A stretch of 64,000 bases of DNA from Caldifarciminota bacterium (GTDB lineage: Bacteria; Hydrothermota; Tepidihabitantia; Tepidihabitantales; Tepidihabitantaceae): contig JAOABP010000003.1 in NCBI GenBank assembly GCA_026418295.1, forward strand, positions 62,001-126,000, written 5' to 3'. The first letter of the stretch is position 1. The number at the start of each line of letters is the position of its first letter. Below the pieces are notes generated by a model, which saw only the letters and a program-made list of their open reading frames with translations, was not told the DNA's origin and ran no database searches. Positions 7,054 through 57,679 of this stretch are shown here, one piece after another. Position numbers and translations under genes: made by a program.

Positions 7054-7081
7054 TTGACTTTTGACTGTAACAGGCTATTTA
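7054..7081 (+). promoter_or_regulatory. Promoter of exported-protein pair, start-codon proximal
   Basis: TTGACT 7054-7059, 16-bp spacer, TATTTA 7076-7081, then six bases to GTG 7088. The -35 box is strong and the -10 weak, but the geometry is the same as at other head genes in the window, implying a leaderless mRNA. A second TTGACT (7061-7066) overlaps. Confidence 0.5.
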
Positions 7082-7087
7082 TTTACT

Positions 7088-7666
7088 GTGAGCCGGTACC
7101 TGCTGGTTTTCCTGGTGCTTTTAACCTCCCTTGCCGGTATCTGCGACCGGCTGCCCGAGCGTCAATGGGAACGGGGTGCATTTGAGCCGATCGGCGGCAA
7201 ACCCTACGAACTGCCTGCCGGACTCGAGCTCCGGTATATTACCGGTGCTGATTCGGAAATCCCGAGCTCACTTCTGCCCCTTGAGCTTTCGGTTCTTAAT
7301 AACACCACCCGGCGCATCCCGGTCCTCATGCCGGCAGGTCTGGTCTTTTCGCCCAACAGCCCGGAGTATCAGTATATGATGCTTTTACAGCAGTTTTCCT
7401 TCTCGGTGCCGCCGGATCAGGAAACAACCGTTCTTTTACCGACCTATTGTGCGAACGAAAACCTGGACGAACCGGATGATGAGTCCTTTTACGAAATTGC
7501 GATTCAGGTCTGGGAGCGGGAGCTGAATGAACTTTTTGAACTCCTGAAAGACAAGCACCTTGATTACGAAGAGGCGGTAGAGCTGGCACAGGAGGCTTTG
7601 TTTGAAATCACCGATGGCGAAGGGCTTACGGACTCAACCCGGCTTAAACTTCAGAACCTCCCCTGA
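7088..7666 (+). CDS. Exported protein of unknown function, paralogue of next gene
   Basis: 192 aa. Starting at GTG 7088, the protein opens with a convincing signal peptide (SRYLLVFLVLLTSLAGICD). The mature part begins with a beta-rich segment and ends in a helical, acidic region (ELNELFELLKDKHLDYEEAVELAQEA). I do not recognise the family. It is related to the next gene: both have an LPxGLxF segment, a hydrophobic strand pair ending in a Cys-containing VLLPTYC / VLGVFCC strand, and a C-terminal (I/V)TDxxGL...LP motif. The upstream TTG at 7061 is promoter sequence. The two genes are 7 nt apart and form one unit. Confidence 0.75.
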   Translation: MSRYLLVFLVLLTSLAGICDRLPERQWERGAFEPIGGKPYELPAGLELRYITGADSEIPSSLLPLELSVLNNTTRRIPVLMPAGLVFSPNSPEYQYMMLLQQFSFSVPPDQETTVLLPTYCANENLDEPDDESFYEIAIQVWERELNELFELLKDKHLDYEEAVELAQEALFEITDGEGLTDSTRLKLQNLP

Positions 7667-7673
7667 AGAAAGT

Positions 7674-8246
7674 ATGTCCGCAACCACCGCTCCATCCCGC
7701 CGGCTGATTCTGGTTTTCATCCTGCTGCTTACTGCCTGCGACGAACTCCTGATACCGACCGACTTTGAACCCACCGGCAGCCCCTTCAGCCTCAACCCCG
7801 GAATTACACTCATCGCCATCGCTGGTGACCGGCAGCATTTCAGTCCGAATGGACTCTATTCGCTGGCACTGGTTGCCCGGGCGAACAACTCTGCCTATGC
7901 GTCTGACACTCTGCCCGGCGGTCTGCTCTTTACCTCAAGCAAAAACTCCACTCAGCACATGATTATCCTTAAGGACCATCCGGTCACCTTCAGCACCAAT
8001 AACACCACGGTCGTGCTCGGCGTCTTCTGCTGTAACCGGCGCCGGCTCATTCCGGCAGAAACCGATACCTTCATGCTCGGACCCCTCACCGACAACCCGG
8101 GACTGCGGCAGCTGGCAGAACTGGTGCGGCACAAACGCATCAGCGAAAACCTGGGTATGGTTCAGCGGGCGGTCTGGATGGTTACCGACTCCACCGGATT
8201 GAATCAGGCGTATATTGACTCAATCAGCGCCCTGCCGGACGAATAA
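7674..8246 (+). CDS. Putative lipoprotein of unknown function, paralogue of previous gene
   Basis: 190 aa. Start ATG 7674 gives a short basic N-terminus, a hydrophobic stretch (LILVFILLLTAC) and a lipobox Cys near residue 22, so this copy is probably membrane-anchored while its neighbour is released. The earlier in-frame start at 7602 would bury the signal peptide and overlap the previous gene, so I rejected it. The body aligns along its length with the previous product (LPGGLLF, VVLGVFCC, VTDSTGL), indicating an old tandem duplication. The upstream GAAGAAAG is a weak ribosome site and coupling to the first gene is likely. It ends 2 nt from the convergent guaA. Function unknown. Confidence 0.75.
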   Translation: MSATTAPSRRLILVFILLLTACDELLIPTDFEPTGSPFSLNPGITLIAIAGDRQHFSPNGLYSLALVARANNSAYASDTLPGGLLFTSSKNSTQHMIILKDHPVTFSTNNTTVVLGVFCCNRRRLIPAETDTFMLGPLTDNPGLRQLAELVRHKRISENLGMVQRAVWMVTDSTGLNQAYIDSISALPDE

Positions 8247-8248
8247 CA

Positions 8249-9775
8249 TCACTCCCATTCAATTGTTGCCGGCGGTTTGGATGAAATATCATAGACCACC
8301 CGGTTAACACCACGGACCTCATTAGTGATCCGGCGGGCGACACGGGCAAGGAGTTCCTCAGGCAACCGTGCCCAGTCTGCGGTCATGGCATCACTGGAAA
8401 CCACCGCCCGCAATGCCACCACATGCTCATAGGTCCGGCGGTCACCCATCACTCCAACTGAACGCACCGGCAAAAGCACTGCCAGCGCCTGCCAGACCTG
8501 ATGATACCAGCCCGACCTCTTCAGCTCACTGATAAATATATGATCCGCCTGCCGTAACATCTCCAGCCGCTCTGGAGTCACAGCGCCGACGATCCTCACC
8601 GCCAGACCGGGCCCGGGAAAGGGATGCCGGTTGAGAATAGAACCCGGAATCTTCAGCGCCCGTCCCAGCTTCCGCACCTCATCCTTGAACAGCTCCTTGA
8701 GCGGTTCAATCAGCTCAAACCTGAGGTCCTTGGGCAGTCCGCCGACATTATGATGAGTCTTGATCGTAGCTGAAGGACCACCGGTGGCAGACCGGGATTC
8801 AATCAGGTCCGGGTACAGCGTCCCCTGAGCAAGAAACCGGATTCCGCCTGCCTGTTCTGCCACCGCCTCGAAAACCCGTATAAACTCCCGGCCAATAATC
8901 CGGCGCTTTTGTTCCGGATCAACTACACCCTCCAGACTGCTCAGAAACCGATTGCGGGCATCTACCGTTCTCACGGGCAGAAGCTGTTTAAGCAGGCCGG
9001 GTACTGCCTCCTCCTCTCCCTGACGCAGCAGTCCATTGTCGACAAACACCGCAATCAGCCGGCGGCCGAGCACCCGGTAGAGCAGAACCGCCATTACCGT
9101 TGAATCCACGCCGCCCGAAACCGCACACAACACCCGCTCCCGTCCTACCTGTTCCCGGATCGACACACTCTGTTCCTGAATAAAATTCTTCATCGTCCAG
9201 TTGCGACGGCACCCGCAGATTTTAAAAAGGAAATTTGCTAGGATATCTTTCCCCAGCGGTGTATGCTCAACTTCGGGATGAAACTGCACCCCGTAAATCT
9301 GCCGGCTTTCATCCGCCATCGCTGCCACTGCGCCCGAACTGGTATCACCCAGCGCTGTGAAACCATCGGGCAGCCGGCGCACCGAGTCCCCATGGCTCAT
9401 CCAGACCGGAAAACTGCCAGGCAGACCTTCAAACAGTGGCGACCGCCGGTTCCGGACAAACCGGCTGTGCCCGTATTCCCGCAGCTCGGACCCGATCCTC
9501 CCACCGAGCATCTGGGCAATCAACTGCATACCATAGCAGATACCCAGAACGGGAACTCCCAGGCGGAAGACTCCAGGATCCGGCTTAGGTGCCTCTTGGT
9601 CTCGCACGCTTGCCGGGCCGCCGGAAAGAATGATCCCGCACGCTCCTCTTGCTAAAATTTCAGCGGGTGCGATATTGAATGGCACGATCTCAGCATAGAC
9701 CTCAAGCTCCCTCACCCGCCGACAGATCAGCTGTGTGTACTGGGAACCAAAATCGAGAATTAAAATCCGGTCCAA
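8249..9775 (-). CDS. guaA: GMP synthase (glutamine-hydrolysing)
   Basis: Converts XMP to GMP using glutamine and ATP, the last step of guanine nucleotide synthesis. 508 aa, full length. The class I glutaminase domain has nucleophile Cys80 in GICYGMQ and His166/Glu168 in FHPEVE. The ATP-pyrophosphatase domain has the P-loop SGGVDST (220-226), followed by the C-terminal dimerisation domain. The start is a TTG at 9775, directly after the stop of the upstream gene (TAA-TTG), so translation is probably coupled. It is the last gene of the plsC-holA-leuS-orf-guaA run. Confidence 0.97.
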
Positions 9776-10195
9776 TTACTTCACCGTTCCTGCTGCGGGC
9801 AGAGTATCCGACAGCAGCAGTTCACACACTCCGCTGGCACTGCCGTAAAGCATGATACACTTCCGGTAGAGATCGTTAGCAGTCGTCTTCGTCCGCGCCT
9901 GACGCCACTGCTCCACTGCCAGCCTCAGCTCCCGGATTTTATCCTCAAGCACCGCCAGCTCCCGCTGTCGTATCACCCGCTCATTGATGGGCGCAGTGGC
10001 GATCCGGCTGCGCACCCCTTTTGCCCGCCGTTCCAGTTCTTCAATCCGGCCAAGATAAGCCTGGATCGAATCGGTACCCGCCTCAAAATCGGGCAGGACA
10101 TCCACCTGCCGGCGCCGAGCCTGCGCAAAATTAAAAATCAGATATCCAAGCAGGACCCCGCCCAGCAGCACCAGAACCAGAAAAAAACCTTTCAT
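9776..10195 (-). CDS. Small membrane-anchored coiled-coil protein
   Basis: 139 aa, family not recognised. One N-terminal membrane segment (FFLVLVLLGGVLLGYLIFNFA) is followed by a charged helical region from about residue 45 to 105 with heptad-like spacing (YLGRIEELERRAKGVRS, LEDKIRELRLAVEQW), so it is likely a coiled coil facing one side of the membrane. Two cysteines lie near the C-terminus. Start ATG 10195 has AGGAGG five bases upstream; the in-frame GTG at 10201 is part of that box. It sits between leuS (21-nt gap) and guaA (no gap). Confidence 0.7.
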   Translation of the reverse strand: MKGFFLVLVLLGGVLLGYLIFNFAQARRRQVDVLPDFEAGTDSIQAYLGRIEELERRAKGVRSRIATAPINERVIRQRELAVLEDKIRELRLAVEQWRQARTKTTANDLYRKCIMLYGSASGVCELLLSDTLPAAGTVK

Positions 10196-10216
10196 AACCA
10201 CCTCCTCTTGTCGGAC

Positions 10217-12712: not shown

Positions 12713-12754
12713 AACCTTTTCACCTCCTGAAAACAAAATTTATTTCCATCCTGT

Positions 12755-13789: not shown

Positions 13790-13805
13790 AACCACCAATT
13801 TTAAT

Positions 13806-14534
13806 TCAATTTCGGCGGTGGTCAACCTCCTGCCACTGGCGGTTATACTTTTTCTCCAGCTCCCGGAACTGCTCAAGCATCAGTCGATTGATGCGTTCAA
13901 TTTCTCGCTTCAGCTCGACATAGCTCACTGTCCCCTGACACCGGGGGAATATCGGCTCGCCGACCGCCAGAATGATATTCCGGTTCAGCAGATTCCCCAC
14001 TACCGAAAAGAACCCCTCCCAGGCCTCATTCAGCCACGGTTTGGAATGGGGAACCGGACCTTTCTTCAGACCGCTTACATAAACGGGCAGAACCGGAACA
14101 CCGGCACGCACCGCCAGCCAGGCGGTGCCGTTATAAACCTTCTCAATTCGTCCCTGCCGATTCAGCTCCCCTTCCGGATAGATGCCGATTGTCTTCCCCT
14201 GTTTCAGCAACTGGATACTCCGGCGCAGGCTTGCCACATTATCCTTAACGCCATCCTTATTCACAGGCATGGTGTCACACAGATTCCGCATCCAGAATCC
14301 GACAAAACGTGACCGGAACCACCTTGCCCAGGCAAGAAAGAAAATCCTCGTCTTCAGCCCGATCTGAATCACAATTGAATCGGCACCGGTCAGATGATTT
14401 GCCGCCACGATCAGCCCGCTGCGCATCGGCAAAGCAATCTTGTCCCGGCCGAAGACCTGTACCCGGATCAGAAGCCCGTAAATTTTCAGTAACAGGTCCT
14501 TAACTTTGTACCACAGCCAGCGGCTCAACTCCAT
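13806..14534 (-). CDS. plsC: 1-acyl-sn-glycerol-3-phosphate acyltransferase family protein
   Basis: Membrane-associated acyltransferase that makes phosphatidic acid or a related lipid. 242 aa. The catalytic HX4D motif is His47-Leu-Thr-Gly-Ala-Asp52 (in AANHLTGADS). The second motif reads YPEGELN rather than the usual FPEGTRS, so the substrate range may differ from E. coli PlsC. A hydrophobic N-terminal helix suggests peripheral or monotopic membrane binding. It heads its transcription unit behind a strong promoter (14549-14577). Confidence 0.88.
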   Translation of the reverse strand: MELSRWLWYKVKDLLLKIYGLLIRVQVFGRDKIALPMRSGLIVAANHLTGADSIVIQIGLKTRIFFLAWARWFRSRFVGFWMRNLCDTMPVNKDGVKDNVASLRRSIQLLKQGKTIGIYPEGELNRQGRIEKVYNGTAWLAVRAGVPVLPVYVSGLKKGPVPHSKPWLNEAWEGFFSVVGNLLNRNIILAVGEPIFPRCQGTVSYVELKREIERINRLMLEQFRELEKKYNRQWQEVDHRRN

Positions 14535-14548
14535 AACTGCCCGGAGAG

Positions 14549-14577
14549 ATTTTAGAAAAAATTTCCGGATCTGTCAA
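14549..14577 (-). promoter_or_regulatory. Promoter of plsC-holA-leuS-orf-guaA
   Basis: Read on the minus strand: TTGACA 14577-14572, 17-bp spacer, TAAAAT 14554-14549, then 14 bases to ATG 14534. Predicted start is near 14542, so the leader is about 8 nt. Near-consensus hexamers. Confidence 0.75.
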
Positions 14578-14580
14578 TGA

Positions 14581-15819: not shown

Positions 15820-15826
15820 CAACACC

Positions 15827-16513: not shown

Positions 16514-16537
16514 CAGCCTCCCCCAACCTCCGAGTTG

Positions 16538-19699: not shown

Positions 19700-21079
19700 T
19701 TACCTCCCCTTCCGGACTGTGACCCTGCCCCGGTGCCGGGCATCACCCCGATACTGAGGCCAGGTTGAGTTCGCCGGTGGTGCATCGCCGTAAAATGCGT
19801 AAAGCCCGCCATCCCACGAGCCGACATAAACCGTTCCATCCTGTCCGATTGCCGGTGAAGAGCTGTAGTAGAGCTCCTTATCACCGCCGGCAACCTCGGC
19901 GGTAAAGAATATCCTGCCCTCCCGGGTAAATGCGTAAAGCACCCCGTCATCGGAAAGCAGATAAACTGTCCCCTGCGCGCTGACCGCCGGTGTCGCACAG
20001 ATACCATCACCGGTCTCATACACCACCCGGATCGTTTTTCCCGGCTCCTTCACACACAGATAGTATCCATCGGTGCCGAGATACATCCTGCCTTCAGAGT
20101 CAAACACCACCTCGGTCCGGATCTCATCCTCATCCGGCACCGGTGCCCGCCACGACATCCTGCCATCCCTTCCCAGACAGTAGACATAACCGTCGAAACT
20201 CCCGCAATACACCAGCCCCTGCCCGTCCACCACCGGTCCGGCAAAGAAATAGGCATTATCCGGTGTGCCGAACGCCCAGCGCCGCTTTCCCTTCGGAGTA
20301 AAGCAGTAAATCGAATCGGCGCTCACATAGATATTGCCATCCGGTCCGATCGTCGGCGCCCCTGCCGCCTCATCACCGAGTTGCACCTGCCAGCGGATTC
20401 TGCCCTTCGGGTCCACACTCACCAGCCTGCCCTTGTCCGTGGTCAGGTAGAGGTTCCGGTCCTGTCCGACTGCGGGCGGAGCCCACAGCTCATCACCCAG
20501 CGGCACCGACCATTTAAGTCTGCCCAGTGTATCCAGGCAGTAGAGGCAGGAGTCCAGCGCCGGCACATAAACCAGCCCCTGCTCCACCGTTGCACCTGCA
20601 TAAACCGGCTGCCGGGCCTGAAAGGTCCAGCGCAGCTCGCCTGCGGAGTTGAAGGAATAAACTGTGCCTGACTCATCTCCGATATAAACATTACCGTTCT
20701 CATCCAGTGCCGGTGCACCGACCACCGGCTCCAGCGTCGGTGCAAACCACTTCAGAAGTGAGGGCACCACCTCCACCGGTATCTGCCGGCTCCAGTCTGA
20801 AGCGATCCCCAGGCGGTCGCGGAGCATCACCCGCACGCGGTAAATACCGGGCTGGCGATAGCGGTGATAACGGTAAACCTCGGTGCGCGAATTCACCGGT
20901 TCGGTCCAGTCCAGGGTCTCACCATCGCCCCAGTCAATCCGGTACTGGACCGGCAGGCTGACATCCTCCGGCGGCAGAACCGCCAGTTCCAGCTCCTGTG
21001 TTGTGTCCACCCGCATCGGGCACACCAGCGAATCTGGTGGCAGAACGGTCAAAATTAAAATCAGGCTCAAACTGCTCAT
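19700..21079 (-). CDS. Exported PKD/PQQ-like beta-propeller protein
   Basis: 459 aa. A short signal peptide (LSLILILTVLPPDSLV) is followed by a PKD-like Ig domain (IDWGDGETLDW, GIYRVRVMLRD) and then seven or so PQQ-type blades with the recurrent pattern 'DxxGNVYIGDxxGxVYSF' and 'AxGAPTIGxDGNIYV'. It ends with WPQYRGDARHRGR, a motif also seen at the end of the PQQ lipoprotein at 38220-40352. Such proteins are outer-surface or periplasmic scaffolds; no catalytic residues are recognisable. It heads the exporter operon from a promoter six bases upstream of its ATG. Confidence 0.85.
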   Translation of the reverse strand: MSSLSLILILTVLPPDSLVCPMRVDTTQELELAVLPPEDVSLPVQYRIDWGDGETLDWTEPVNSRTEVYRYHRYRQPGIYRVRVMLRDRLGIASDWSRQIPVEVVPSLLKWFAPTLEPVVGAPALDENGNVYIGDESGTVYSFNSAGELRWTFQARQPVYAGATVEQGLVYVPALDSCLYCLDTLGRLKWSVPLGDELWAPPAVGQDRNLYLTTDKGRLVSVDPKGRIRWQVQLGDEAAGAPTIGPDGNIYVSADSIYCFTPKGKRRWAFGTPDNAYFFAGPVVDGQGLVYCGSFDGYVYCLGRDGRMSWRAPVPDEDEIRTEVVFDSEGRMYLGTDGYYLCVKEPGKTIRVVYETGDGICATPAVSAQGTVYLLSDDGVLYAFTREGRIFFTAEVAGGDKELYYSSSPAIGQDGTVYVGSWDGGLYAFYGDAPPANSTWPQYRGDARHRGRVTVRKGR

Positions 21080-21085
21080 ATCACA

Positions 21086-21113
21086 ATCTTAAGTCTGCAG
21101 GGCTGATTGTCAA
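21086..21113 (-). promoter_or_regulatory. Leaderless promoter of the PQQ-exporter operon
   Basis: Minus strand: TTGACA 21113-21108, 16-bp spacer, TAAGAT 21091-21086, six bases, ATG 21079. The predicted transcription start coincides with the A of the start codon. There is no Shine-Dalgarno. Confidence 0.8.
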
Positions 21114-22934: not shown

Positions 22935-23300
22935 CTATTTATTTTCCTCACCTTCCGGCTCCAGCCCCTCCATCTCATCCAGCAGCCGGTTGATCCGCTG
23001 CTCCTGCGCCAGCACCTCATCCAGCGCAAAATGCAGTTCGGGCAGAAACTTCATCTTCAGACGCCGGCTCAGCTGATAACGGATAAAACCCCGGGCATGC
23101 TCCAGGTGCGCAAGCGAGCGCTGCCGCTGCGCATCATCACCCATCACCGAAAAATAGACCGTGGCATTCCGCAGATCCCTTGACAGTGAACATCTGGTGA
23201 CAGTGACAAACCCCACACCCGGGTCCGAGATCTGCTTCAGGATAATCTCCGCAACAATATCCCGGATCGCATCCGCCACCCTGCGCTCCCGATACCGCAT
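22935..23300 (-). CDS. rbfA: Ribosome-binding factor A
   Basis: 30S maturation factor with a KH-like fold, 121 aa. The family pattern RRVADAIRDIVAEIIL, the DPGVGFVTVTRCSLSRDLRNATVYFSV strand region (about residues 25-52) and the LPELHFALDE segment are present. It heads the rbfA-truB-ribF unit with ATG exactly six bases after its -10 box and no ribosome-binding site, so the mRNA should be leaderless. Its -35 box lies at the extreme 3' end of the upstream carbonic-anhydrase-like gene. Confidence 0.95.
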   Translation of the reverse strand: MRYRERRVADAIRDIVAEIILKQISDPGVGFVTVTRCSLSRDLRNATVYFSVMGDDAQRQRSLAHLEHARGFIRYQLSRRLKMKFLPELHFALDEVLAQEQRINRLLDEMEGLEPEGEENK

Positions 23301-23306
23301 AATTTT

Positions 23307-23334
23307 ATGCTAAACCTTCCGGCACAAAGGTCAA
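23307..23334 (-). promoter_or_regulatory. Leaderless promoter of rbfA-truB-ribF
   Basis: Minus strand: TTGACC 23334-23329, 16-bp spacer, TAGCAT 23312-23307, six bases, ATG 23300. The -35 overlaps the stop codon region of the upstream gene (ends 23331). Confidence 0.7.
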
Positions 23335-25273: not shown

Positions 25274-25280
25274 ACCCTTC

Positions 25281-25308
25281 AATTTACCGATACCGGCGCC
25301 GGAGTCAA
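25281..25308 (-). promoter_or_regulatory. Leaderless-type promoter of aspS
   Basis: Minus strand: TTGACT 25308-25303, 16-bp spacer, TAAATT 25286-25281, seven bases to ATG 25273. Predicted start is one base before the ATG. Confidence 0.65.
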
Positions 25309-25330: not shown

Positions 25331-25358
25331 TTGACCCGGACCGGATTCCGCCTATCAT
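25331..25358 (+). promoter_or_regulatory. Leaderless promoter of the 1002-aa exported protein
   Basis: TTGACC 25331-25336, 16-bp spacer, TATCAT 25353-25358, six bases, ATG 25365. No ribosome-binding site. Divergent from the aspS promoter, with 22 bp between the two -35 boxes. Confidence 0.8.
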
Positions 25359-25364
25359 ACAGCG

Positions 25365-29018: not shown

Positions 29019-29024
29019 CCGGTT

Positions 29025-29052
29025 AAATTAAATGCCGGACAGCAGATGTCAA
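29025..29052 (-). promoter_or_regulatory. Leaderless promoter of yhhQ (TTG start)
   Basis: Minus strand: TTGACA 29052-29047, 16-bp spacer, TAATTT 29030-29025, six bases, TTG 29018. Divergent to the hslU promoter, with 14 bp between the -35 boxes. Confidence 0.6.
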
Positions 29053-29066: not shown

Positions 29067-29094
29067 TTGACATTATCGCCAGCTCCGCTATCCT
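29067..29094 (+). promoter_or_regulatory. Leaderless promoter of hslU
   Basis: TTGACA 29067-29072, 16-bp spacer, TATCCT 29089-29094; four bases to ATG 29099 and seven to ATG 29102. The predicted start, near 29101, favours the second ATG. Confidence 0.65.
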
Positions 29095-29098
29095 GAAT

Positions 29099-30469: not shown

Positions 30470-30471
30470 TT

Positions 30472-32324: not shown

Positions 32325-32352
32325 TTGACTTGCCGTTAGGGTTTCTTATCAT
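32325..32352 (+). promoter_or_regulatory. Leaderless promoter of the NrdG-like gene
   Basis: TTGACT 32325-32330, 16-bp spacer, TATCAT 32347-32352, six bases, ATG 32359. The predicted transcription start equals the first base of the ATG. Confidence 0.8.
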
Positions 32353-38069: not shown

Positions 38070-38081
38070 AATATCTTTTTC

Positions 38082-38109
38082 AATTTAACGCTGATACCCC
38101 AAATGTCAA
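38082..38109 (-). promoter_or_regulatory. Promoter of purD unit
   Basis: Minus strand: TTGACA 38109-38104, 16-bp spacer, TAAATT 38087-38082, 12 bases to ATG 38069. Predicted leader is about 6 nt, too short for a riboswitch. Confidence 0.65.
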
Positions 38110-46085: not shown

Positions 46086-46116
46086 TTGCCTGCTGCAAAT
46101 GATCAACTAATATAAT
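46086..46116 (+). promoter_or_regulatory. Leaderless-type promoter of the phosphoesterase
   Basis: TTGCCT 46086-46091, 16-bp spacer, TAATAT 46108-46113, six bases, GTG 46120. An overlapping perfect TATAAT (46111-46116) with a 19-bp spacer is an alternative -10; either puts the start at or beside the GTG. Confidence 0.6.
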
Positions 46117-46119
46117 AGG

Positions 46120-47472
46120 GTGAAGACGCTGTCTGCCATCGCCTTACTTGTCTTGATTCAATCTCAAGCCCCTGCCTCATTTCTGAAATCCCCCTACCTT
46201 CAGAATCTCACCGATTCATCGGTCGTCATCTGCTGGGAACAGGTGGAGGCGAGTGCAGGACGCGTTGATTACGGACTCACCCCGAAGCTTGAGTTTACCA
46301 GCTGGGACAGCGGTAGTGTTTGTCTGCACATGGTTTATCTTTCTCAACTTTGTCCTGATACGGTTTACTATTATCGGGTAATCACCCAAACCGACACCTC
46401 GCCGGTCTGCAGATTCCGCACACTCTCGCCCAGCCGGCAGACAATGCGGCTGCTGGTCTATGGCGACTCCCGCACCGACAGCACCGCGCACCAAGCGGTA
46501 ATTAACCGCATGCTCACCCTTAATCCGTTACCCGCGATCCTGCTGAGCACCGGTGATCTGACCGAAAACGGCTCCGACTCCTGTTATCAGCTTTTCTTTA
46601 ATATTACTGCGGACCTTCTCTGCCGGACTTGCCTCTTTCCGGTTTTGGGAAATCACGACATCCGGAACATTGACAACTACTTTCGTTTTTTTGTTCTCCC
46701 CGGCAACGAACGCTACTACTCCTTCCGTTACGGTATCTGTATCTTCATCATGCTTGACAACTATTCGGAGATCCAGCCCGGCAGTGCTCAATATGAGTGG
46801 CTGATGCAGACACTCCAGAGCGCTCAGCATGACCCGAGTATCCGGCATAAATTCATCGTTTTTCACGAACCCCCCTTTACGACCAATCAGGCACATCCGG
46901 GCAACGAACAAATTCAGCGTTACCTCTGCCCGCTGTTTGAGCAGTTTCAGGTAACCGCGACATTTTCCGGTCATATCCACGCCTATGAGCACTCACTGGT
47001 AAATGGCATCCATTATTTTACTGCTGGCGGTGGCGGGGCGCCGCTCCACACTCAATGGTATGAACCGGCACCCTGGACAGTCTACCGGGAGGCGGTATAT
47101 CAGTTCATGGTCGTGGATGTCAATGGTGATACTGTAATTACCTGTGGGGTCAGAGCTGATGGCACCGGATTTGATACCACGCTGATTCCCCGGCGTCAGG
47201 GAATTAATTCCGCTGATATTGCAAATTACCTCCAGCCGGAATTGCAGGTGTCCAGTCCGGGTGCCAGGGGTATCAGAATAAACTTTGTATCAGTCACCCC
47301 GGCAACAATCGCAATTTATGATCTGCTGGGTCGCAAAAAGGCGGAATTTAACTATCGCTCAGCCCCGTCCGGACTGCATACGATTACCTGGCACGCACCT
47401 GCCCCGGGTTGTTATTTCCTGATATTGAAAACGTCCAATCAGACCCGATACCGGCGTCTGACTGTCTTCTGA
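46120..47472 (+). CDS. Secreted purple-acid-phosphatase-like metallophosphoesterase with T9SS-like C-terminus
   Basis: 450 aa. GTG start giving the signal peptide KTLSAIALLVLIQSQAPAS. A fibronectin-III-like domain (about 20-95) precedes a calcineurin-type phosphoesterase domain with the five metal motifs: YGDSRTD, STGDLTENG, LGNHDIRN, VFHEPP and SGHIHAYEH. A C-terminal ~80-residue domain (TPATIAIYDLLGRKKAEF, SGLHTITWHAPAPGCYFL) resembles a T9SS sorting or FlgD-like Ig domain. This is the architecture of secreted purple acid phosphatases; substrate unknown. Confidence 0.9.
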   Translation: MKTLSAIALLVLIQSQAPASFLKSPYLQNLTDSSVVICWEQVEASAGRVDYGLTPKLEFTSWDSGSVCLHMVYLSQLCPDTVYYYRVITQTDTSPVCRFRTLSPSRQTMRLLVYGDSRTDSTAHQAVINRMLTLNPLPAILLSTGDLTENGSDSCYQLFFNITADLLCRTCLFPVLGNHDIRNIDNYFRFFVLPGNERYYSFRYGICIFIMLDNYSEIQPGSAQYEWLMQTLQSAQHDPSIRHKFIVFHEPPFTTNQAHPGNEQIQRYLCPLFEQFQVTATFSGHIHAYEHSLVNGIHYFTAGGGGAPLHTQWYEPAPWTVYREAVYQFMVVDVNGDTVITCGVRADGTGFDTTLIPRRQGINSADIANYLQPELQVSSPGARGIRINFVSVTPATIAIYDLLGRKKAEFNYRSAPSGLHTITWHAPAPGCYFLILKTSNQTRYRRLTVF

Positions 47473-47484: not shown

Positions 47485-48474
47485 TTACTCGCCCAGTAGT
47501 CGCTGAGCAATCTGGAGCGCATTGGTCGCCGCCCCCTTGCGCAGATTGTCGGTGCAGATCCAGAGATTTAAATCATATTCGGTTGCACCCTGCCGCACCC
47601 GGCTGACATACACATCATTTTTACCTCTGCACTCCGCCGGTGTCGCCAGTTCACTGTCCGCCTTCAGCACGACACCAGGAGCTTTGTTCAGAATATTCCT
47701 TGCCTCTGCCGGTTCAACCCGGCGATCAAAACGGCAGGTTACCGCCAATGAATGCCCGACCGCAACCGGTACCCGCACACAGGTTGAATTGACTTTCAAT
47801 TCCGGCAGACCCAGAATCTTTCTGCTCTCGAGCACGGTCTTCTTCTCCTCACTGCTCACCCCGTGCTCGTCGATACTGCCGATTACGGGAATGACATTGT
47901 CGGCAATCTGGCTGATAAACGGACTCCCGCCGGTATCCGGCTTCTGCCTCAGGGCAATAAACTCGGTCTCATAGAAAAACTGCTCCAGTGCTGCCCGGCC
48001 CGCTCCGGATACCGACTGGTATGTAGCAAGAAAAACCTCCTTCAATCCGAACTGCTGGTGCAGGGGATACAATGCCACTACCAGTGGGATCGTGGTGCAG
48101 TTCGGGTTCGCAATGATATTCTTATGTCCCTTTAACGCCTCCGGATTCACCTCCGGCACAACCAGCGGCACTTCAGGCGCAAGCCGGAACTCGCTTGATT
48201 TATCAATCACCGGACAGAACCTTGCCACTTCCGGCACGAACTCCCGGGCAAGTTCATTCTCCAGGCAGAAAAAGGCGAGCTCCAGACCTTCAAACCCCTC
48301 AGCCGTAACCTCCCTGACCTCAATCTCCCGGTCGCGGAACCGGATTCTGGTCCCGGCACTCCGCTTTGAGGCAAAAAGGCGCAGATCGGTAATTTCGTAA
48401 TCGGAAGCCTCAAGCAGCCGAAGCAGGGTTTCGCCTACCAGACCGGTAGCACCCGCAATACCGATCTTCTTCAT
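47485..48474 (-). CDS. asd: Aspartate-semialdehyde dehydrogenase
   Basis: Reduces aspartyl phosphate to the semialdehyde for Lys, Thr, Met and cell-wall DAP. 329 aa from ATG 48474. NADP-binding GATGLVGETLL, catalytic Cys126 in NPNCTTIP, and the QSVSGAGRAA and RVPVAVGHS segments (the His is the base) match the family. The ORF extension to 48531 crosses the promoter and was rejected. It converges with the phosphoesterase gene, with a 12-nt gap. No other gene of the pathway is nearby. Confidence 0.96.
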   Translation of the reverse strand: MKKIGIAGATGLVGETLLRLLEASDYEITDLRLFASKRSAGTRIRFRDREIEVREVTAEGFEGLELAFFCLENELAREFVPEVARFCPVIDKSSEFRLAPEVPLVVPEVNPEALKGHKNIIANPNCTTIPLVVALYPLHQQFGLKEVFLATYQSVSGAGRAALEQFFYETEFIALRQKPDTGGSPFISQIADNVIPVIGSIDEHGVSSEEKKTVLESRKILGLPELKVNSTCVRVPVAVGHSLAVTCRFDRRVEPAEARNILNKAPGVVLKADSELATPAECRGKNDVYVSRVRQGATEYDLNLWICTDNLRKGAATNALQIAQRLLGE

Positions 48475-48481
48475 TAATATT

Positions 48482-48510
48482 ACAATAAATTCCCTGCCTC
48501 CTTTTGTCAA
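48482..48510 (-). promoter_or_regulatory. Leaderless-type promoter of asd
   Basis: Minus strand: TTGACA 48510-48505, 17-bp spacer, TATTGT 48487-48482, seven bases to ATG 48474. AAAGGAGG lies inside the spacer, far from the ATG, and is not a ribosome site. Confidence 0.65.
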
Positions 48511-48540
48511 TTCTGAACGCAGTTCCGCCATCCGAGTGTT

Positions 48541-48569
48541 TTGACTTCATCTGTGCCGGAATCTAAAAT
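48541..48569 (+). promoter_or_regulatory. Leaderless promoter of the chromate transporter
   Basis: TTGACT 48541-48546, 17-bp spacer, TAAAAT 48564-48569, five bases, GTG 48575. No Shine-Dalgarno. Divergent from asd. Confidence 0.75.
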
Positions 48570-48574
48570 AACCG

Positions 48575-49714
48575 GTGCGCCCTGCAGTTCCACTGCGCCA
48601 GCTGGCGCTGGTATTCCTCAAAATCGGTACCTTCGGTTTCGGCGGCGGTGCCGGAATGCTGGCGCTGATCCGCCAGGAGGTTGTAGAAAAACGGCGCTGG
48701 CTTGATGACACGGAGCTGGCAACTGCGGTGGCAATGGGGCAGATGCTGCCGGGCCCGTTTGTCTCCAATTATGCTGAATACATCGGCTATCGTCTTGCCG
48801 GAATACCGGGCATGATAGTCAGCACCCTCGGTCTGCTTTTCCCGGGCTTTGTACTCATACTGCTCTTGGGTATTGCCTATTACCGTTATGGCAGCCTGCC
48901 GCTCATTCAGAAAGCCTTCACCGGAATTCAGCCCGTTGTTACCGGTATCCTCGCCTGGGCAACATGGACAATCGGACGCACCAATGTCCGCAGCTGGCGT
49001 TCAGCACTGCTTGCCCTGATCTCGGCGCTCGCCCTGCTCCTCGGCGGCGACATTCTCCTGGTGGTCCTCGGCTGTGGTCTTCTGGCAATTCTCACTACAA
49101 AAAAACCGGCTCGTTCATCCCGGACCCTGCTCCTGCTGCCCCTGCCGTATCTCATCACCGGCAGTCAGACACGCCCGGCGCTGCCCCAACTTTTCCGTCA
49201 GGCAGGTGAACTGGCACTCGTATTCTTCAAGATGGGCACGGTCATCTTCGGGGGCGGCTTTGCTGCCATTCCCTTTCTCCAGCACGAAGTGGTAGAACTG
49301 CGCGGCTGGCTCACTACCCGCGAGTTCATTGATGCGGTGGCACTGGGACAGATGACACCCGGTCCTGTGGCGCTCATGGCAACCTTCATCGGCTACCGCG
49401 TCCTTGGAATTCCGGGCGCCCTGATCGCCACGCTCGGCACATTTCTCCCTTCCGCCCTGATGCTCTTCGGTCTGATTAAAGGTTACGATAAAATCAGAAA
49501 CAATCCGCTGGTCCGCTCATTTCTTGCCGGGGTTCTCCCGGCAGTTGTCGGCATGCTTTTTGCTTCAACTGTTTTTATTGCCCGCAGCTCCTTCACCGGA
49601 TTAATTTCTGTGATAACCGCCCTGCTCACCCTTTTGCTTCTGCTCCGCTTCTCAGTTCTCCAGCCGGTCTGGCTGATTATTGGCGGGGCACTGCTCGGTC
49701 TAATTTCCCCTTGA
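48575..49714 (+). CDS. chrA: Chromate transporter (ChrA, two-domain)
   Basis: 379 aa membrane protein with two homologous CHR domains in one chain. Each begins with the family motif: FLKIGTFGFGGGAGMLALIRQ near residue 14 and FFKMGTVIFGGGFAAIPFLQ near residue 217. Each carries a GQMLPGPF / GQMTPGPV motif. CHR proteins export chromate or related oxyanions. The true substrate may be sulfate-like; the family name does not prove chromate resistance. It starts with GTG directly after its -10 box. Confidence 0.93.
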   Translation: MRPAVPLRQLALVFLKIGTFGFGGGAGMLALIRQEVVEKRRWLDDTELATAVAMGQMLPGPFVSNYAEYIGYRLAGIPGMIVSTLGLLFPGFVLILLLGIAYYRYGSLPLIQKAFTGIQPVVTGILAWATWTIGRTNVRSWRSALLALISALALLLGGDILLVVLGCGLLAILTTKKPARSSRTLLLLPLPYLITGSQTRPALPQLFRQAGELALVFFKMGTVIFGGGFAAIPFLQHEVVELRGWLTTREFIDAVALGQMTPGPVALMATFIGYRVLGIPGALIATLGTFLPSALMLFGLIKGYDKIRNNPLVRSFLAGVLPAVVGMLFASTVFIARSSFTGLISVITALLTLLLLLRFSVLQPVWLIIGGALLGLISP

Positions 49715-49739
49715 TTTATCCCGGATAATAGTCTAAAAT
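49711..49739 (+). promoter_or_regulatory. Leaderless promoter of the C25 peptidase
   Basis: TTGATT 49711-49716 (overlapping the chrA stop codon), 17-bp spacer, TAAAAT 49734-49739, six bases, ATG 49746. The predicted start is the first base of the ATG. Confidence 0.75.
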
Positions 49740-49745
49740 ACATCG

Positions 49746-52700
49746 ATGACCGTATCCCTCTTGTCTGTCTTTTTTTTAACACTCGCCGGCAACACAAATC
49801 TGCGGCTGATCGAATCCGACACCCGCCACCTTGTGCTCGAATTCGAGCCGGAAACCGTGCTCGTCTCATCGGACCGCAGCGGAGTGACAGTGCCGGGTAC
49901 CCTTCCCGTCGTAAAACCCGGCGAGCCCGATGTGCCGGGGTTGAAAATTTTACTCGGCTGTCCTCAAACCGGGGCAATCCGGCTCAGCACCGAGATTGAA
50001 AACCTGCAGGAATTTTCCGATGTAACCGTTCCGCCCGCACCTGCACTCAGCGAAAAACAGGTAGCGCCCTCCGCGGTCTTCACTCAGAACCGGTTCTTTC
50101 CTGAAAACTGGGCAGAAATTGAAACGGTGGAAACCATCCGCAACATCCGCGTCGCCCGGCTCCGCCTCAACCCGCTCCGCTTCAACCCCGTTCAGAAGAA
50201 ACTCCGCACCGCCCGGCTCCGCGTAATCATCAGCTTCACCGACCCGCCAAAAGACAATTATGCGCCGGACCCGCTCGATTCTCTCCTGAGCACAACTCTG
50301 ATCAACGGCTCTCAGGCAATAAACTGGAAACTGCCGTTTGCCCCTGACTCAGTAAACTTTTTTACCCGTTTCAGTCAGTGGTACCGGGTCCGGACCGAAA
50401 CCACCGGCATCTACCGCCTCACCTACACCCAGCTCAGAAATGCCGGCATCGAACCGGCAACCATTGACCCCCGCACCATTCACCTCTTCACACTCGGACC
50501 CCATCCGCTTAACGGTCCCTATCCGGATACCATGATTGAACTCCCGATACTGGTGCCGGGCGAAACCGATGGCAGATTTGACCCGCAGGACTATATCCTC
50601 TTCTATGCTCAGTCGCCGTCATGGTGGAACGACTCGCTGACCCGCTGGCGGGAAAATTACTACACCCGCTATCAGACCTTCTGGCTCACCTGGGGTGGCG
50701 ATACCGGCAGGAGAATGCAGGCGACTGCGGTCGGAGCGGAAGCACCGGTTAATCGTGCCCGCACCCGGCTCCGGCTGGAACAGGACCTGCTCTGTCCGGC
50801 ACGGGGCGGTCTGCTCTGGCTCTGGGAGCGGTATACAACCGCCGGCGAACCGTATCACTGTCAGCTCATCCTCCCCAACCGGGATACAATCAAAAGTCTC
50901 GCTGTCCGCTTTTATGGCAAGAGTGAACAGCCGACCGCATATCCGGCGGTCATCCGCCTTAACGGTGAACTGCTTGATACCGTGGCAATTATTGCCCAGA
51001 GCCGCGGCTGTCCGCCCAACACCTATGTGTTTGAAAGTCTGCCCGGTCCTGCCGCCGCCTCCAGCCGGACCATTGACACCCTGACGGTAGAACTCCTCAG
51101 TGCCGGCGATGTCTATCTTGACTACATTGAAGTCGATTACATCACCCGGCTTGAGCTCAGCGCCCAGAATCCGGAACTCACATTTTACACCACCGCCCCT
51201 GCCCAGCTCAGTATCACCGGCGTCGATCCGGCAACAGTTGTCCTTGACATCACCGACCCCTGGCAACCCCGGCACTTCACCGGCATCACCGGTAATACCG
51301 CTTCCCTGCTCCTCACCGCTCCCTTCAACCGCATCTTTGCGGTCCGCTCCACTGCCTTCCGTTCACCTCAGCTCCGGCGTCGCAACCCCGGTAACCTCCG
51401 TCTTCCGGAAGAAACCGCTGACTATTACATTATTGCGCCGGACGAATTTCTGTCCCCTGCCCGGCTCCTTGCCGATTACCGCAGCGGGAAAATACCCGGC
51501 CTTGCCAACGGCCGGGCACGGGCGGTTGCCCTCACCCAGATTTACGATGACTACGCCTTCGGAATGGAGGAACCGGGGGCAATCAAGGCATTCCTGCGGG
51601 CAAAGCGTCCCGCCTACGGCCTGCTCCTCGGCGATGCCACCTATGACTACAGGGACAATCTCAAACTCAACCCGCCGCCCGGTGTGCCCGCCTATGAGAT
51701 CGGCTTTGACCTTGATTACGAAGTTTACAACGAATATGTCCGGGCGCTCGATGCCTGGTATGCCGACTTTGACGGCGAAGGGTCGGGTCCGGACATGATC
51801 CTCGCCCGTTTCACCGCCCGCACCCCGCAGCAGGTCCGCCAGTTTCTGGAAAAGCTCCGCCGTTATGAAACTCAGCAGCCTGATCTCTGGACCCGGCGCT
51901 GCCTCCTGCTGGCGGATGACGAGTTTCTCGGCGATGTTACCAAACCCGAATCATTCACCCACCTCTACAACTGTGAAAACATCGCCGCCCTCATCGGCGA
52001 ACAGCTGGACATCGAAAAACTTTACCTCACGGAATACAAACTTGAAGGTCCCAATTCCAAACCCCGTGCCGGTGCTGAACTCATCCGCCTGCTGAACCAG
52101 GGGACCCTGCTCTGGTGCTATTTCGGTCATGGTGCCGGCTTCCAGCTGGCACACGAGCGGGTTTTCCATATTGACGATGTCCCCAGGGTCAGCAACGCCA
52201 CCCGTCTGCCGGTCGCCTTCTTCGGCTCCTGCGGAGTCGGCAGATTTGAAGACACCCGCTACGAATCAATTGCTGAGGAACTGGTGCGCAGTGCTGAAGG
52301 CTGTATCGCCACGATGGGTGCATCAAAGGCAACCTATTCCGGCGGTAATGAGAGCTTTGCCCGCATCTTCCTCGCCAAACTGCTGGAAAATCCGGCTCAG
52401 CCCATCGGCGCCGCCTTCTATCCTGCCTGGCTCACCTACAACCTTTATATCCTCTTCGGTGACCCGACCCTGCGCATCCGCCTGCCCGCTGCCACCGGCA
52501 CCATTGCGGTTAATCCGGAAACCCTGAACCCCGGCGCTCCGGTCAGCTGGTCCTCCGCTCCGGCAATGAGCGGATGGTTTGCCCTCCGCGCCACCGAAGC
52601 CTGGCGCCACCGTTTCTACCATTCGACGGTCGGCATCGCCAGCTATGATCTGCCCGCTCAGGAAATCTTCCGGCTGACCGCAAGATTCCGGGATTCAGTT

Positions 52701-54796: not shown

Positions 54797-54797
54797 A

Positions 54798-55790: not shown

Positions 55791-55802
55791 CCTTTTCTCC
55801 TT

Positions 55803-56294: not shown

Positions 56295-57352
56295 AGCTCC
56301 ACCTCGCTTGCATCGGAAAGCAGCAGTTTCAGACTGCCGCCGGACTGACCACCGGCTCGGACCCGCACCTCCCTGCCCAGCAGGCTCTCGCTCATCCTCC
56401 GCACCCCGGAGATCACACACCTTTCCAGAATCACCGAATGCTCAATCTCGGAACCGGAAATCTCACACCCGGCACTGACCGAAACAAAAGGACCGATACG
56501 GGAGTTATCAATCCGGCACCCTGCGCCGATGACCACCGGACCCGAGAGCTCGCAGTTGCTGAGCCGGGCGCCCGCCTCAATCCGCACCGGACCGGTGATC
56601 CGGCAGTTGTCAACCGTACCTGCCACCACCTGCTGTTTGAAGCTTGCCAGCACCTGCCGGTTCGCCGCCAGCAGATCATCCTTCTTGCCGGTATCCAGCC
56701 ACCAGCCGGGAAGCACAATCGGCAGCACCCTTCTGCCCTGCTCAATCAGCCCCTGAATCGCCTCGGTGATCTCCAGCTCCCCGCGTGCGGAAAACTTGAG
56801 CTGTTCAATCACCTGATGAATCACCGGGGAGAAGATATAAACTCCGACCAGCGCCAGACTGGAGGGCGGCTCTGCCGGCTTCTCCACCAGCCGGACCACC
56901 GCTCCGTTCTTCAGCTCTGCCACTCCGAACCGCCGCGGGTCGCTGACCTCCTTGAGCATGATCACCGCATCCGCACCGCCGGACGAAAAAAGTGTCAGCC
57001 CCGGTTCAAGCCCGTCCTGAAGCAGATTGTCGCCCAGATACATCACAAACGGCTCTGTGCCTAAAAAATCCCGGCTCACCTTTACCGCATGTGCCAGCCC
57101 GAGCGGCTCCTCCTGCCGGATATAGGTCACCTGAAAGTTCCAGCGCCGGCCATCACCGACAAACTCCTGAATCTGCGCCCCGGTCTCAGGTGAAACCACA
57201 ATCCCGACCTCCTCCAGCCCGGCAACCATCAGATGTTCAAGCACATAGGAAAGAATCGGCCGGTTTGCCACCGGCACCAGCTGTTTGGGAATCGTCCAGG
57301 TCAGGGGCCGCAGCCTTGTCCCCCTGCCACCGCAAAGTACCAGCGCCCGCAT
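56291..57352 (-). CDS. rfbA: Glucose-1-phosphate thymidylyltransferase (long form)
   Basis: Makes dTDP-glucose from glucose-1-phosphate and dTTP. 353 aa from ATG 57352. Nucleotide-binding LCGGRGTRLRPLTW at the N-terminus, PKQLVPVANRP, and a C-terminal left-handed beta-helix (about 245-340) with hexapeptide-like repeats (CRITGPVRIEAGARLSNCEL). The long form with a beta-helix differs from E. coli RmlA and resembles enzymes of secondary-metabolite and surface-sugar loci. First gene of rmlA-rmlC-rmlB-RecG-like; its start lies seven bases after the -10 box. Confidence 0.93.
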   Translation of the reverse strand: MRALVLCGGRGTRLRPLTWTIPKQLVPVANRPILSYVLEHLMVAGLEEVGIVVSPETGAQIQEFVGDGRRWNFQVTYIRQEEPLGLAHAVKVSRDFLGTEPFVMYLGDNLLQDGLEPGLTLFSSGGADAVIMLKEVSDPRRFGVAELKNGAVVRLVEKPAEPPSSLALVGVYIFSPVIHQVIEQLKFSARGELEITEAIQGLIEQGRRVLPIVLPGWWLDTGKKDDLLAANRQVLASFKQQVVAGTVDNCRITGPVRIEAGARLSNCELSGPVVIGAGCRIDNSRIGPFVSVSAGCEISGSEIEHSVILERCVISGVRRMSESLLGREVRVRAGGQSGGSLKLLLSDASEVEL

Positions 57353-57359
57353 TCCTATA

Positions 57360-57388
57360 ATTATCCACCCGCTGTCAATGACTGTCAA
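57360..57388 (-). promoter_or_regulatory. Leaderless-type promoter of the rml operon
   Basis: Minus strand: TTGACA 57388-57383, 17-bp spacer, GATAAT 57365-57360, seven bases to ATG 57352. A second TTGACA lies inside the spacer. Confidence 0.7.
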
Positions 57389-57423
57389 GCAAAACTCCCG
57401 AAACAGCCTCAATCTACACCTGC

Positions 57424-57452
57424 TTGACATTCCCAAGTCAAAATACTATAAT
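57424..57452 (+). promoter_or_regulatory. Perfect-consensus leaderless promoter
   Basis: TTGACA 57424-57429, 17-bp spacer, TATAAT 57447-57452, five bases, ATG 57458. Both hexamers and the spacer equal the sigma70 consensus. The predicted start (57459 plus or minus 1) falls on the ATG, and no Shine-Dalgarno exists. Confidence 0.9.
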
Positions 57453-57457
57453 TAGTT

Positions 57458-57679
57458 ATGCCGATCAGAGAATTTATCTGCTGCTCCTGTGGTCATCAGT
57501 TTGAGGAGCTGATTCTGAGCGCGCACGATGAAAAGAACCTCGTCTGTCCCAGCTGCGGCAGTTGCGAACTCAACCGCTGTTTTTCGGTGTTCGGTGTCTC
57601 CGGAGCAGAGAAAAAGGTTAAAACCACCGGCTCGAGCTGCAGCCGCTGCTCCAGTCACAACTGCAGCTCCTGCGGTTAA
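57458..57679 (+). CDS. FmdB-like zinc-ribbon protein
   Basis: 73 aa. N-terminal PIREFICCSCGHQFEELI and LVCPSCGS form a CxxC...CxxC zinc ribbon of the FmdB type. The tail is unusually rich in Ser/Cys (SSCSRCSSHNCSSCG), adding more possible metal ligands. Function unknown; such proteins are thought to be small regulators. It sits under a perfect promoter directly ahead of the HU gene (11-nt gap) and a tiny ribosomal-type gene, so it is likely strongly expressed. Confidence 0.85.
   Translation: MPIREFICCSCGHQFEELILSAHDEKNLVCPSCGSCELNRCFSVFGVSGAEKKVKTTGSSCSRCSSHNCSSCG

What the first reader, a model, noticed from the sequence alone, without database searches (positions are those of the whole stretch)
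7054..57460. Head genes of transcription units appear leaderless; operon-internal genes use Shine-Dalgarno
At least twelve genes share one layout: TTGAC-type -35, 16-17 bp, TA-rich -10, then 4-8 bases to the start codon and no ribosome-binding site. Cases (gap after -10): 7088 GTG (6), 21079 (6), 23300 (6), 25273 (7), 25365 (6), 29018 TTG (6), 29099/29102 (4/7), 30472 (8), 32359 (6), 46120 GTG (6), 48474 (7), 48575 GTG (5), 49746 (6), 57352 (7), 57458 (5). plsC, purD and wbaP have leaders of about 6-8 nt. Internal genes (10195, 12712, 17647, 19696, 36294, 40352, 42547, 55790, 57691, 58002) instead carry AGGAG-type boxes. This suggests two translation-initiation modes sorted by operon position.
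Basis: partly seen in the sequence, partly recalled or inferred. Interest (0 to 1): 0.75.

Follow-up and report, generated by a model that had tools for sequence, protein, structure and literature searches.

The report
Leaderless operon heads in WOR-3 bacterium
In this uncultured bacterium about half of the genes that clearly start a transcript have their promoter pressed right against the start codon, so their messenger RNAs probably begin at the start codon itself, while genes further along a transcript tend to use the usual ribosome-binding signal; the arrangement is known elsewhere but seems unreported for this branch of bacteria.

Summary
The window lies in a 1.8-Mb genome of candidate phylum WOR-3. 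In a 704-kb sample (562 classified genes), a start-site model puts a TTGAC/TAnnnT promoter 2-13 nt before the start codon (mode 6) in 59 of 116 divergent first genes, against 7 after shuffling; 44 of 116 use a Shine-Dalgarno (SD) box. Of 232 genes within 15 nt of an upstream partner, 10 are promoter-proximal and 113 SD-led. Starting from promoters gives the same peak. Above aspS the layout persists in 21 of 24 readable genomes of the order. Pattern counts show it in all 30 sampled genomes of the class, weaker and patchy in 70 others of the phylum. Anti-SD, S1, S21 and IF3 are present. Reader errors: 30472 is operon-internal (its "promoter" is hslU's last codons), and first genes are split between two modes. 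Best reading: leaderless or near-leaderless mRNA, as in Deinococcus, Mycobacterium and Sulfolobus; a new lineage for a known mode. No RNA 5' ends were measured.

The parts
7054..7090 (+). -35 7054-7059, -10 (TATTTA, weak) 7076-7081, GTG start 7088, gap 6
   Evidence: same layout in G043
   Evidence: same in G043
14532..14577 (-). plsC-like acyltransferase: -35 14572-14577, -10 14549-14554, ATG 14534, gap 14, predicted leader about 8 nt
   Evidence: upstream letters, read by eye; PF01553; labelled 'none' by the model, whose gap range ends at 13
21077..21113 (-). beta-propeller gene: -35 21108-21113, -10 21086-21091, ATG 21079, gap 6
23298..23334 (-). rbfA: -35 23329-23334, -10 23307-23312, ATG 23300, gap 6
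   Evidence: gap 5 in G043, 6 in G058
25271..25308 (-). aspS (aspartate--tRNA(Asn) ligase): -35 25303-25308, -10 25281-25286, ATG 25273, gap 7
   Evidence: layout in 21 of 24 readable genomes of the order (own genome included)
25331..25367 (+). GH113-domain gene: -35 25331-25336, -10 25353-25358, ATG 25365, gap 6; back-to-back with aspS
29016..29052 (-). Vut_1 transporter: -35 29047-29052, -10 29025-29030, TTG 29018, gap 6
   Evidence: ATG with gap 6 in G022
29067..29104 (+). hslU: -35 29067-29072, -10 29089-29094, ATG 29099 (gap 4) or 29102 (gap 7)
   Evidence: not kept in G015 (gap 31), gap 11 in G022
30386..30474 (+). REJECTED case: 3' end of hslU and start of ornithine carbamoyltransferase 30472; promoter-like letters are hslU codons
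32325..32361 (+). radical SAM gene: -35 32325-32330, -10 32347-32352, ATG 32359, gap 6
   Evidence: gap 6 in G043, G015, G022, G103; no promoter found in G058
38067..38109 (-). purD: -35 38104-38109, -10 38082-38087, ATG 38069, gap 12, predicted leader about 6 nt
   Evidence: gap 10-12 in four relatives, 18 in G022
46086..46122 (+). phosphoesterase: -35 TTGCCT 46086-46091, -10 46108-46113, GTG 46120, gap 6
   Evidence: G043 differs (ATG, gap 12)
48472..48510 (-). semialdehyde dehydrogenase: -35 48505-48510, -10 48482-48487, ATG 48474, gap 7
48541..48577 (+). chromate transporter: -35 48541-48546, -10 48564-48569, GTG 48575, gap 5; back-to-back
49711..49748 (+). C25 peptidase: -35 TTGATT 49711-49716, -10 49734-49739, ATG 49746, gap 6
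57350..57388 (-). nucleotidyltransferase: -35 57383-57388, -10 GATAAT 57360-57365, ATG 57352, gap 7
   Evidence: G043 differs (an in-frame ATG lies 6 nt after its -10, read by eye)
57424..57676 (+). FmdB-type zinc ribbon gene (ATG 57458, gap 5): -35 57424-57429, -10 57447-57452; head upstream of the SD-led HU/IHF-like gene 57691
   Evidence: (by eye)
58181..58223 (+). sugar transferase (wbaP-like): -35 58181-58186, -10 58203-58208, ATG 58221, gap 12
10193..10207 (-). representative internal gene with AGGAGG SD, ATG 10195

Best explanation
These are ordinary sigma-70-type promoters (TTGAC-16/17-TATAAT) placed so that transcription starts at, or a few nucleotides before, the start codon. The mRNAs of about half of the certain first genes are therefore leaderless or near-leaderless, and the ribosome must recognise the 5'-terminal AUG/GUG directly. 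Other first genes have a leader with an SD box; downstream genes use SD boxes or sit so close to the previous gene that translational coupling is likely. Shown: promoter motifs, spacing, absence of SD, conservation, intact anti-SD and S1/S21/IF3. Inferred: the transcription start (taken as about 7 nt after the -10), actual translation of such mRNAs, and the 70S/5'-end recognition route known from other bacteria.
For: Start model (gaps 2-13 and spacers 15-19 allowed): -35 TTGAC (first three positions >=0.96), spacer 16 or 17 in 95%, gap 6 in 31% and 5-12 in 98%; divergent heads L59/S44/N13 versus shuffled L7. Promoter-first peak at 6 nt. Promoter-proximal genes do not hide a downstream SD start more than SD genes do (15 of 135 vs 22 of 226). 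aspS: 21 of 24 readable genomes of the order (own included; relatives 56-97% protein identity) have the promoter at gap 5-8 before the aligned ATG although the letters between the boxes differ widely between genera; a 22nd (G102) has an in-frame GTG at gap 6. Replication: G022 divergent L47 of 78 (shuffled 10), internal 7 of 164 (shuffled 9); G102 21 of 97 (shuffled 2). Class-wide: near/far pattern ratio 1.85-2.98 in 30 of 30 sampled genomes, median 2.27; 70 other genomes of the phylum median 1.45. In this genome GTG starts gather at gap 5-6 (16 of 21 GTG within gaps 5-12; ATG 20 of 61; p 8e-4; the split was chosen after seeing the data). Anti-SD, S1, IF3 and S21.
Against: No mapped 5' ends. 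44 of 116 divergent heads are SD-led, and only 7 of 109 wide-gap same-strand genes have the strict layout. Shuffled sequence still gives 19 L labels of 562. The GTG effect is not significant in four other genomes pooled (GTG:ATG 9:25 vs 7:48, p 0.15). aspS exceptions: G048 and G033; hslU layout not kept in G015. G070 of the same class gives only 10 of 32 (shuffled 3), and G011 of another class 8 of 22 (shuffled 5).
Confidence: 0.86

Rival explanations
1. Start codons are mis-assigned: the promoters are ordinary, and translation really starts further in, after a normal leader with an SD box.
For: Automatic start calls are uncertain; 15 of 135 L genes have an in-frame start with an SD 5-mer within 90 nt.
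Against: The same holds for 22 of 226 SD genes. With unambiguous starts the enrichment remains, 21 of 99 vs 0.66 expected. Where orthologues were found, most align from residue 1 at the promoter-adjacent start. A random in-frame start would not peak sharply at 6 nt.
Confidence: 0.06
2. The AT-rich stretch is not a promoter but an unstructured or S1-binding leader that helps SD-independent initiation on longer mRNAs.
For: A full-length S1 is present; PMC5397173 (abstract and passages) notes that AT-rich or U-rich biases near -10 could be S1 sites and that non-SD genes have weak structure.
Against: A TTGAC box sits at a fixed 16-17 bp distance, as expected of a sigma-70 promoter and not of a leader; boxes and spacing persist while the spacer changes.
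Confidence: 0.03
3. Leaderless mRNAs are real but a by-product of promoter crowding in compact intergenic regions, without selection for, or a special capacity for, 5'-terminal initiation. (Not exclusive of the best explanation, so the odds overlap.)
For: L genes dominate co-directional gaps of 51-80 nt (18 of 31), and 12 of 17 L/L divergent pairs are 76-114 nt apart.
Against: L heads also occur in wide gaps (5 of 17 L/L pairs 199-462 nt; 11 of 63 co-directional gaps >150 nt), and these starts lack SD, so the ribosome must still cope with such mRNAs.
Confidence: 0.15

Closest known systems
Leaderless genes ('-10-motif' or TA-led) of Deinococcus-Thermus (PMC12340547; PMC3160421)
   Same: TA-rich -10 just upstream of the start codon (about 10 bp in PMC3160421) in place of an SD; a large share of genes (about 30-46% in those papers, about 21% here after subtracting shuffles).
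   Different: Different phylum; no RNA data here. Here a strong TTGAC at 16-17 bp accompanies the -10; whether a -35 does so there I did not read.
Leaderless transcriptome of Mycobacterium (PMC3898074; PMC4633059)
   Same: About a quarter of genes with a mapped start; ATG and GTG both used at the 5' end; leaderless and SD classes coexist.
   Different: In M. tuberculosis no conserved -35 was found at mapped promoters (PMC3898074 passage); in this genome the -35 is a dominant signal.
Sulfolobus solfataricus: single and operon-proximal genes leaderless, distal genes SD-led (as described in PMC3160421); PMC5397173 says the same tendency was reported for Bacteroidetes, Cyanobacteria and Deinococcus-Thermus
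   Same: The same sorting by operon position.
   Different: Sulfolobus has archaeal promoters and ribosomes (recalled); here many proximal genes are still SD-led.

Membership tests
Leaderless (TA-led) bacterial genes as in PMC3160421 | -10-like signal about 10 bp upstream of the start codon, enriched over background | tested here: met
Leaderless (TA-led) bacterial genes as in PMC3160421 | no SD box at those starts | tested here: met
   promoter (gap 4-9) and SD 5-mer together in 1 of 550 genes of the four position classes; 52 of 550 have the promoter
Leaderless (TA-led) bacterial genes as in PMC3160421 | RNA 5' end at or within about 5 nt of the start codon | not testable with these tools
   no RNA data held
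Leaderless (TA-led) bacterial genes as in PMC3160421 | translation initiates at that codon | not testable with these tools
   only indirect: orthologue N-termini align there
Operon-position sorting as in Sulfolobus (leaderless first, SD distal) | leaderless genes confined to first position | tested here: met
   10 of 232 genes within 15 nt of an upstream partner labelled L; shuffles give 5 of 239 for the slightly wider class (gap <=25 nt, where 11 of 239 are L); one of the 10, 30472, shown to be spurious
Operon-position sorting as in Sulfolobus (leaderless first, SD distal) | first genes uniformly leaderless | tested here: not met
   44 of 116 divergent heads SD-led
Operon-position sorting as in Sulfolobus (leaderless first, SD distal) | internal genes uniformly SD-led | tested here: not met
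   113 SD, 109 without signal of 232

The most novel reading that the evidence does not exclude
A whole class of candidate phylum WOR-3 uses 5'-terminal AUG/GUG recognition for a large share of its transcription units (about half of the divergent first genes in this genome), with strong -35/-10 promoters held at a fixed distance from the start codon by selection. GUG is accepted mainly when it is itself the first codon of the RNA (gap 5-6), while AUG tolerates a few extra nucleotides, which points to a true 5'-end recognition step. Sister classes of the phylum have partly lost or never gained this, so the phylum could show how leaderless initiation is gained and lost.
Probability: 0.4. Interest if true: 0.6.

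Novelty: new member of a known kind. Interest (0 to 1): 0.42.

Why it matters
Start and operon prediction in such WOR-3 genomes that relies on SD boxes or on gene spacing could be wrong for roughly a fifth of genes: co-directional genes only 51-80 nt apart look more often like separate transcription units than like one operon (18 of 31 promoter-proximal). The phylum has families with a strong and with an absent signal, so it is a usable system for asking how leaderless translation is gained or lost beside an intact SD system, outside the Actinobacteria and Deinococcus-Thermus.

Tried and rejected
Rejected: 30472 as a head gene (hslU coding); a missing or altered translation apparatus in this genome (anti-SD, S1, S21, IF3 all present). 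S1 loss as the reason for variation within the phylum is not supported: 98 of 100 genomes have a match to rpsA at E<=0.001 and the two without are 61% and 80% complete, but some matches are only weak S1-domain ones and 21 of 100 pass the curated cut-off. The GTG concentration at gap 5-6 was tested in four other genomes and did not reach significance. A look at functions of 9 SD-led heads (10 drawn of 37 usable, one dropped because it ran over the end of its locus) and 10 of 48 leaderless divergent heads showed no clear difference beyond one elongation factor G being SD-led; too few to say. Pattern searches in other phyla gave near/far ratios of 0.64-1.42 in seven bacterial genomes and 1.69 in a Deinococcales genome; the archaeal genome (10 vs 2) has counts too small to use. 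E. coli could not be searched as a control. Papers: searches for leaderless + WOR-3 (none), Stahlbacteria + promoter (none), WOR-3 + translation initiation (18 papers, 10 listed) and leaderless with uncultivated/metagenome terms (26 papers, 15 listed) showed no title on leaderless genes in WOR-3. Of the two WOR-3 papers I opened I saw passages only: PMC12542636 has no 'Shine-Dalgarno' or 'promoter' in its main text; in PMC12285271 the one 'translation initiation' is a reference title.
Full report
WHAT AND WHERE. The window is bases 62001-126000 of contig 10 in a 1.797-Mb genome of 16 contigs. Its aspartyl-tRNA synthetase finds 22 loci in named genomes: the best (84%) is an uncultured bacterium without a phylum name, the next five by kind (63-72%) are titled candidate division WOR-3; the upstream letters of four of these (L044, L045, L046, L047) are the same as those of G110, G109, G093 and G064, which the search tool places in the window's own family or order. 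I therefore place the genome in WOR-3. The 16S rRNA gene ends in GGATCACCTCCTTTCT, an intact anti-SD.

GENE CALLS. I called 564 genes in 704 kb (window plus stretches of the same genome, 39% of it) with a codon-context model that knows nothing of upstream signals, and classed them by neighbour: divergent upstream neighbour (certain first gene), same strand with a wide gap, or same strand with a small gap. Fourteen genes at sequence edges are outside the four classes.

CHANCE TEST. Promoters (TTGAC with at most one mismatch, 15-19 bp, TANNNT) ending 4-9 nt before the called start: divergent 24 of 116 (shuffled mean 1.0), same strand >=80 nt 7 of 109 (1.0), 26-79 nt 20 of 86 (0.7), internal 1 of 239 (0.7). 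With unambiguous starts only: 8 of 38, 4 of 34, 9 of 27, and internal 1 of 114. Promoter plus SD 5-mer together: 1 of 550. Working from promoters instead of starts, exact TTGAC-16..19-TANNNT occurs 218 times; 125 lie outside same-strand genes with a candidate start within 60 nt, and the distance peaks at 6 (25), with 82 at 3-12. Of the comparison motifs, CAGTT, GTTCA and a 28-31 bp spacer gave 3, 0 and 7 such sites. ATNNNA gave 42, 27 of them at 4-10 nt, which I read as the same AT-rich boxes in another register, so it is not a clean null. TAnnAT (68) is a subset of the signal. In the 84 kb that hold the window the count is 12 at gap 4-8, against 2 at gap 9-13 and 0-2 in the 5-nt bins from 14 on.

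TWO SIGNALS. A model that picks start, SD or promoter together (gaps 2-13 and spacers 15-19 allowed) learned TTGAC (0.97, 0.96, 0.98, 0.85, 0.83), spacer 16 (63%) or 17 (32%), and gap 6 as the mode (31%; 5 12%, 7 9%, 8 12%, 9 12%, 10 10%, 11 4%, 12 7%). Divergent first genes: L59, S44, none 13 (shuffled 7, 10, 99). Genes within 15 nt of their upstream neighbour: L10, S113, none 109. Overall L135, S226, none 201 of 562; the shuffled run labels 19 L, so about 116, or 21%, are above that background. SD-led divergent heads have a promoter 14-120 nt upstream in 27 of 44 cases; L heads have a strict promoter at 2-13 nt in 40 of 59. So operon position matters (p 3e-16), but first genes are split between two modes.

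14 of 15 cases stand. 30472 is rejected: ornithine carbamoyltransferase starting 2 nt after hslU, whose own C-terminal codons make the promoter-like letters. The model also labelled it L, a reminder that its internal L calls are near noise. 57691 is SD-led because the head of its unit is the FmdB-type gene at 57458. In the window the model labels 8 of 10 divergent heads L; with 57458 put in place of 57691 it is 9 of 10, the exception being 46010.

CONSERVATION. In the relatives where an orthologue was found, rbfA, the radical-SAM gene, purD and Vut_1 mostly keep the promoter-to-start distance within 1-2 nt while the rest of the upstream region changes; exceptions are the radical-SAM gene in G058, purD in G022, hslU in G015 and G022, and 46120 in G043. 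Many window genes had an orthologue only in G043, which is too close to be telling. For aspS, 27 loci were examined and 3 did not reach the N-terminus. Of 24, own genome included, 21 have the promoter at gap 5-8 before the aligned ATG, G102 has an in-frame GTG at gap 6 five codons upstream, G048 has gap 17 and G033 has none. The spacer letters differ widely between genera.

SPREAD. Counting TTGAC-16..19-TANNNT followed by RTG at 4-8 nt and at 19-23 nt in the same 100 genomes of the phylum: in 30 of 30 genomes of the own class the ratio is 1.85-2.98 (median 2.27); in the other 70 it is 0.73-2.14 (median 1.45), with seven at or above 1.8 and families f10, f17, f22, f28, f30 and f31 near 1. Two more genomes of the family under the full model: G022 divergent L47/S19/N12 (shuffled L10), internal L7 of 164 (shuffled 9); G102 divergent L21/S33/N43 (shuffled L2). 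Same class, another family: G070 L10 of 32 (shuffled 3). Other classes: G011 8 of 22 (5), G027 11 of 28 (2), G035 6 of 44 (0). In genomes of other phyla the pattern ratio is 0.64-1.42 in seven bacterial genomes and 1.69 in a Deinococcales genome.

TRUE LEADERLESS VERSUS SHORT LEADER. In the own genome GTG starts are 16 at gap 5-6 and 5 at gap 7-12, ATG starts 20 and 41 (promoter-first, no codon prior; p 8e-4; I chose the split after seeing the counts). This is what is expected if GUG works mainly at the very 5' end, but four other genomes pooled give 9:25 versus 7:48, same direction, p 0.15. In mycobacteria an ATG or GTG at the 5' end is necessary and sufficient (PMC4633059, abstract and passages).

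COMPACTNESS. 12 of 17 divergent pairs in which both genes are promoter-proximal are 76-114 nt apart, room for two -35/-10 sets and little else; S/S pairs have a median of 348 nt (n=10). The number of L/L pairs (17 of 58) is near what independence predicts (15.0), so the two sides do not attract each other. Co-directional gaps of 51-80 nt are mostly promoter-proximal (18 of 31).

MACHINERY. S1 matches nearly the whole rpsA model (13-514 of 516) over its curated cut-off, and IF3 and S21 are present. Nothing suggests a ribosome deprived of SD initiation.

KNOWN OR NEW. Leaderless genes by this criterion are described in many bacteria, most in Deinococcus-Thermus (about 40%) and Actinobacteria (about 20%), and the proximal/distal sorting is described for Sulfolobus (PMC3160421: abstract, one section and passages). 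[quoted passage not shown] A 2025 study of the Deinococcus -10 motif surveyed complete reference genomes and excluded unclearly classified species (PMC12340547, outline, passages, sections 11 and 14). My four searches (two of them saw only part of a longer list) showed nothing on WOR-3. So this is a new lineage for a known mode, with a -35 that mapped M. tuberculosis promoters lack (PMC3898074, passages).

Noticed in passing
window 60001-64000: GC falls from about 0.58 to 0.43 and no gene is called between 60503 and 63494; possibly a foreign segment.
   Followed up: no
L021 17676-19211 and the following 780 nt: By eye the 16S gene is followed by what looks like a protein gene on the other strand rather than a 23S gene; the rRNA genes may be unlinked. 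No search was made.
   Followed up: no
window 23969-25273: aspS is of the archaeal-type non-discriminating kind (TIGR00458). It is found at E<=1e-100 in sampled genomes of families f1-f4 and f34, but in none sampled of f5-f7, f35 or f36 of the same class (25 of 61 genomes in all).
   Followed up: partly
L049 (contig JAGXRL010000156.1): Record titled Candidatus Latescibacterota, but the aspS upstream letters printed are identical to those of L149 (G138), a genome of the window's order: probably a mislabelled WOR-3 genome.
   Followed up: partly
L061-L063, upstream of aspS: Three archaeal aspS loci share a TTAAAAAACCCC stretch roughly 18-32 nt before the ATG, perhaps an archaeal promoter of a leaderless gene.
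   Followed up: no
window 30469-30472: hslU is directly followed, 2 nt later and without SD, by ornithine carbamoyltransferase; the conserved hslU end above this gene suggests the same order in five relatives.
   Followed up: partly
internal genes of the 704-kb sample: 109 of 232 closely spaced internal genes have neither SD nor promoter signal, suggesting much translational coupling without SD.
   Followed up: no
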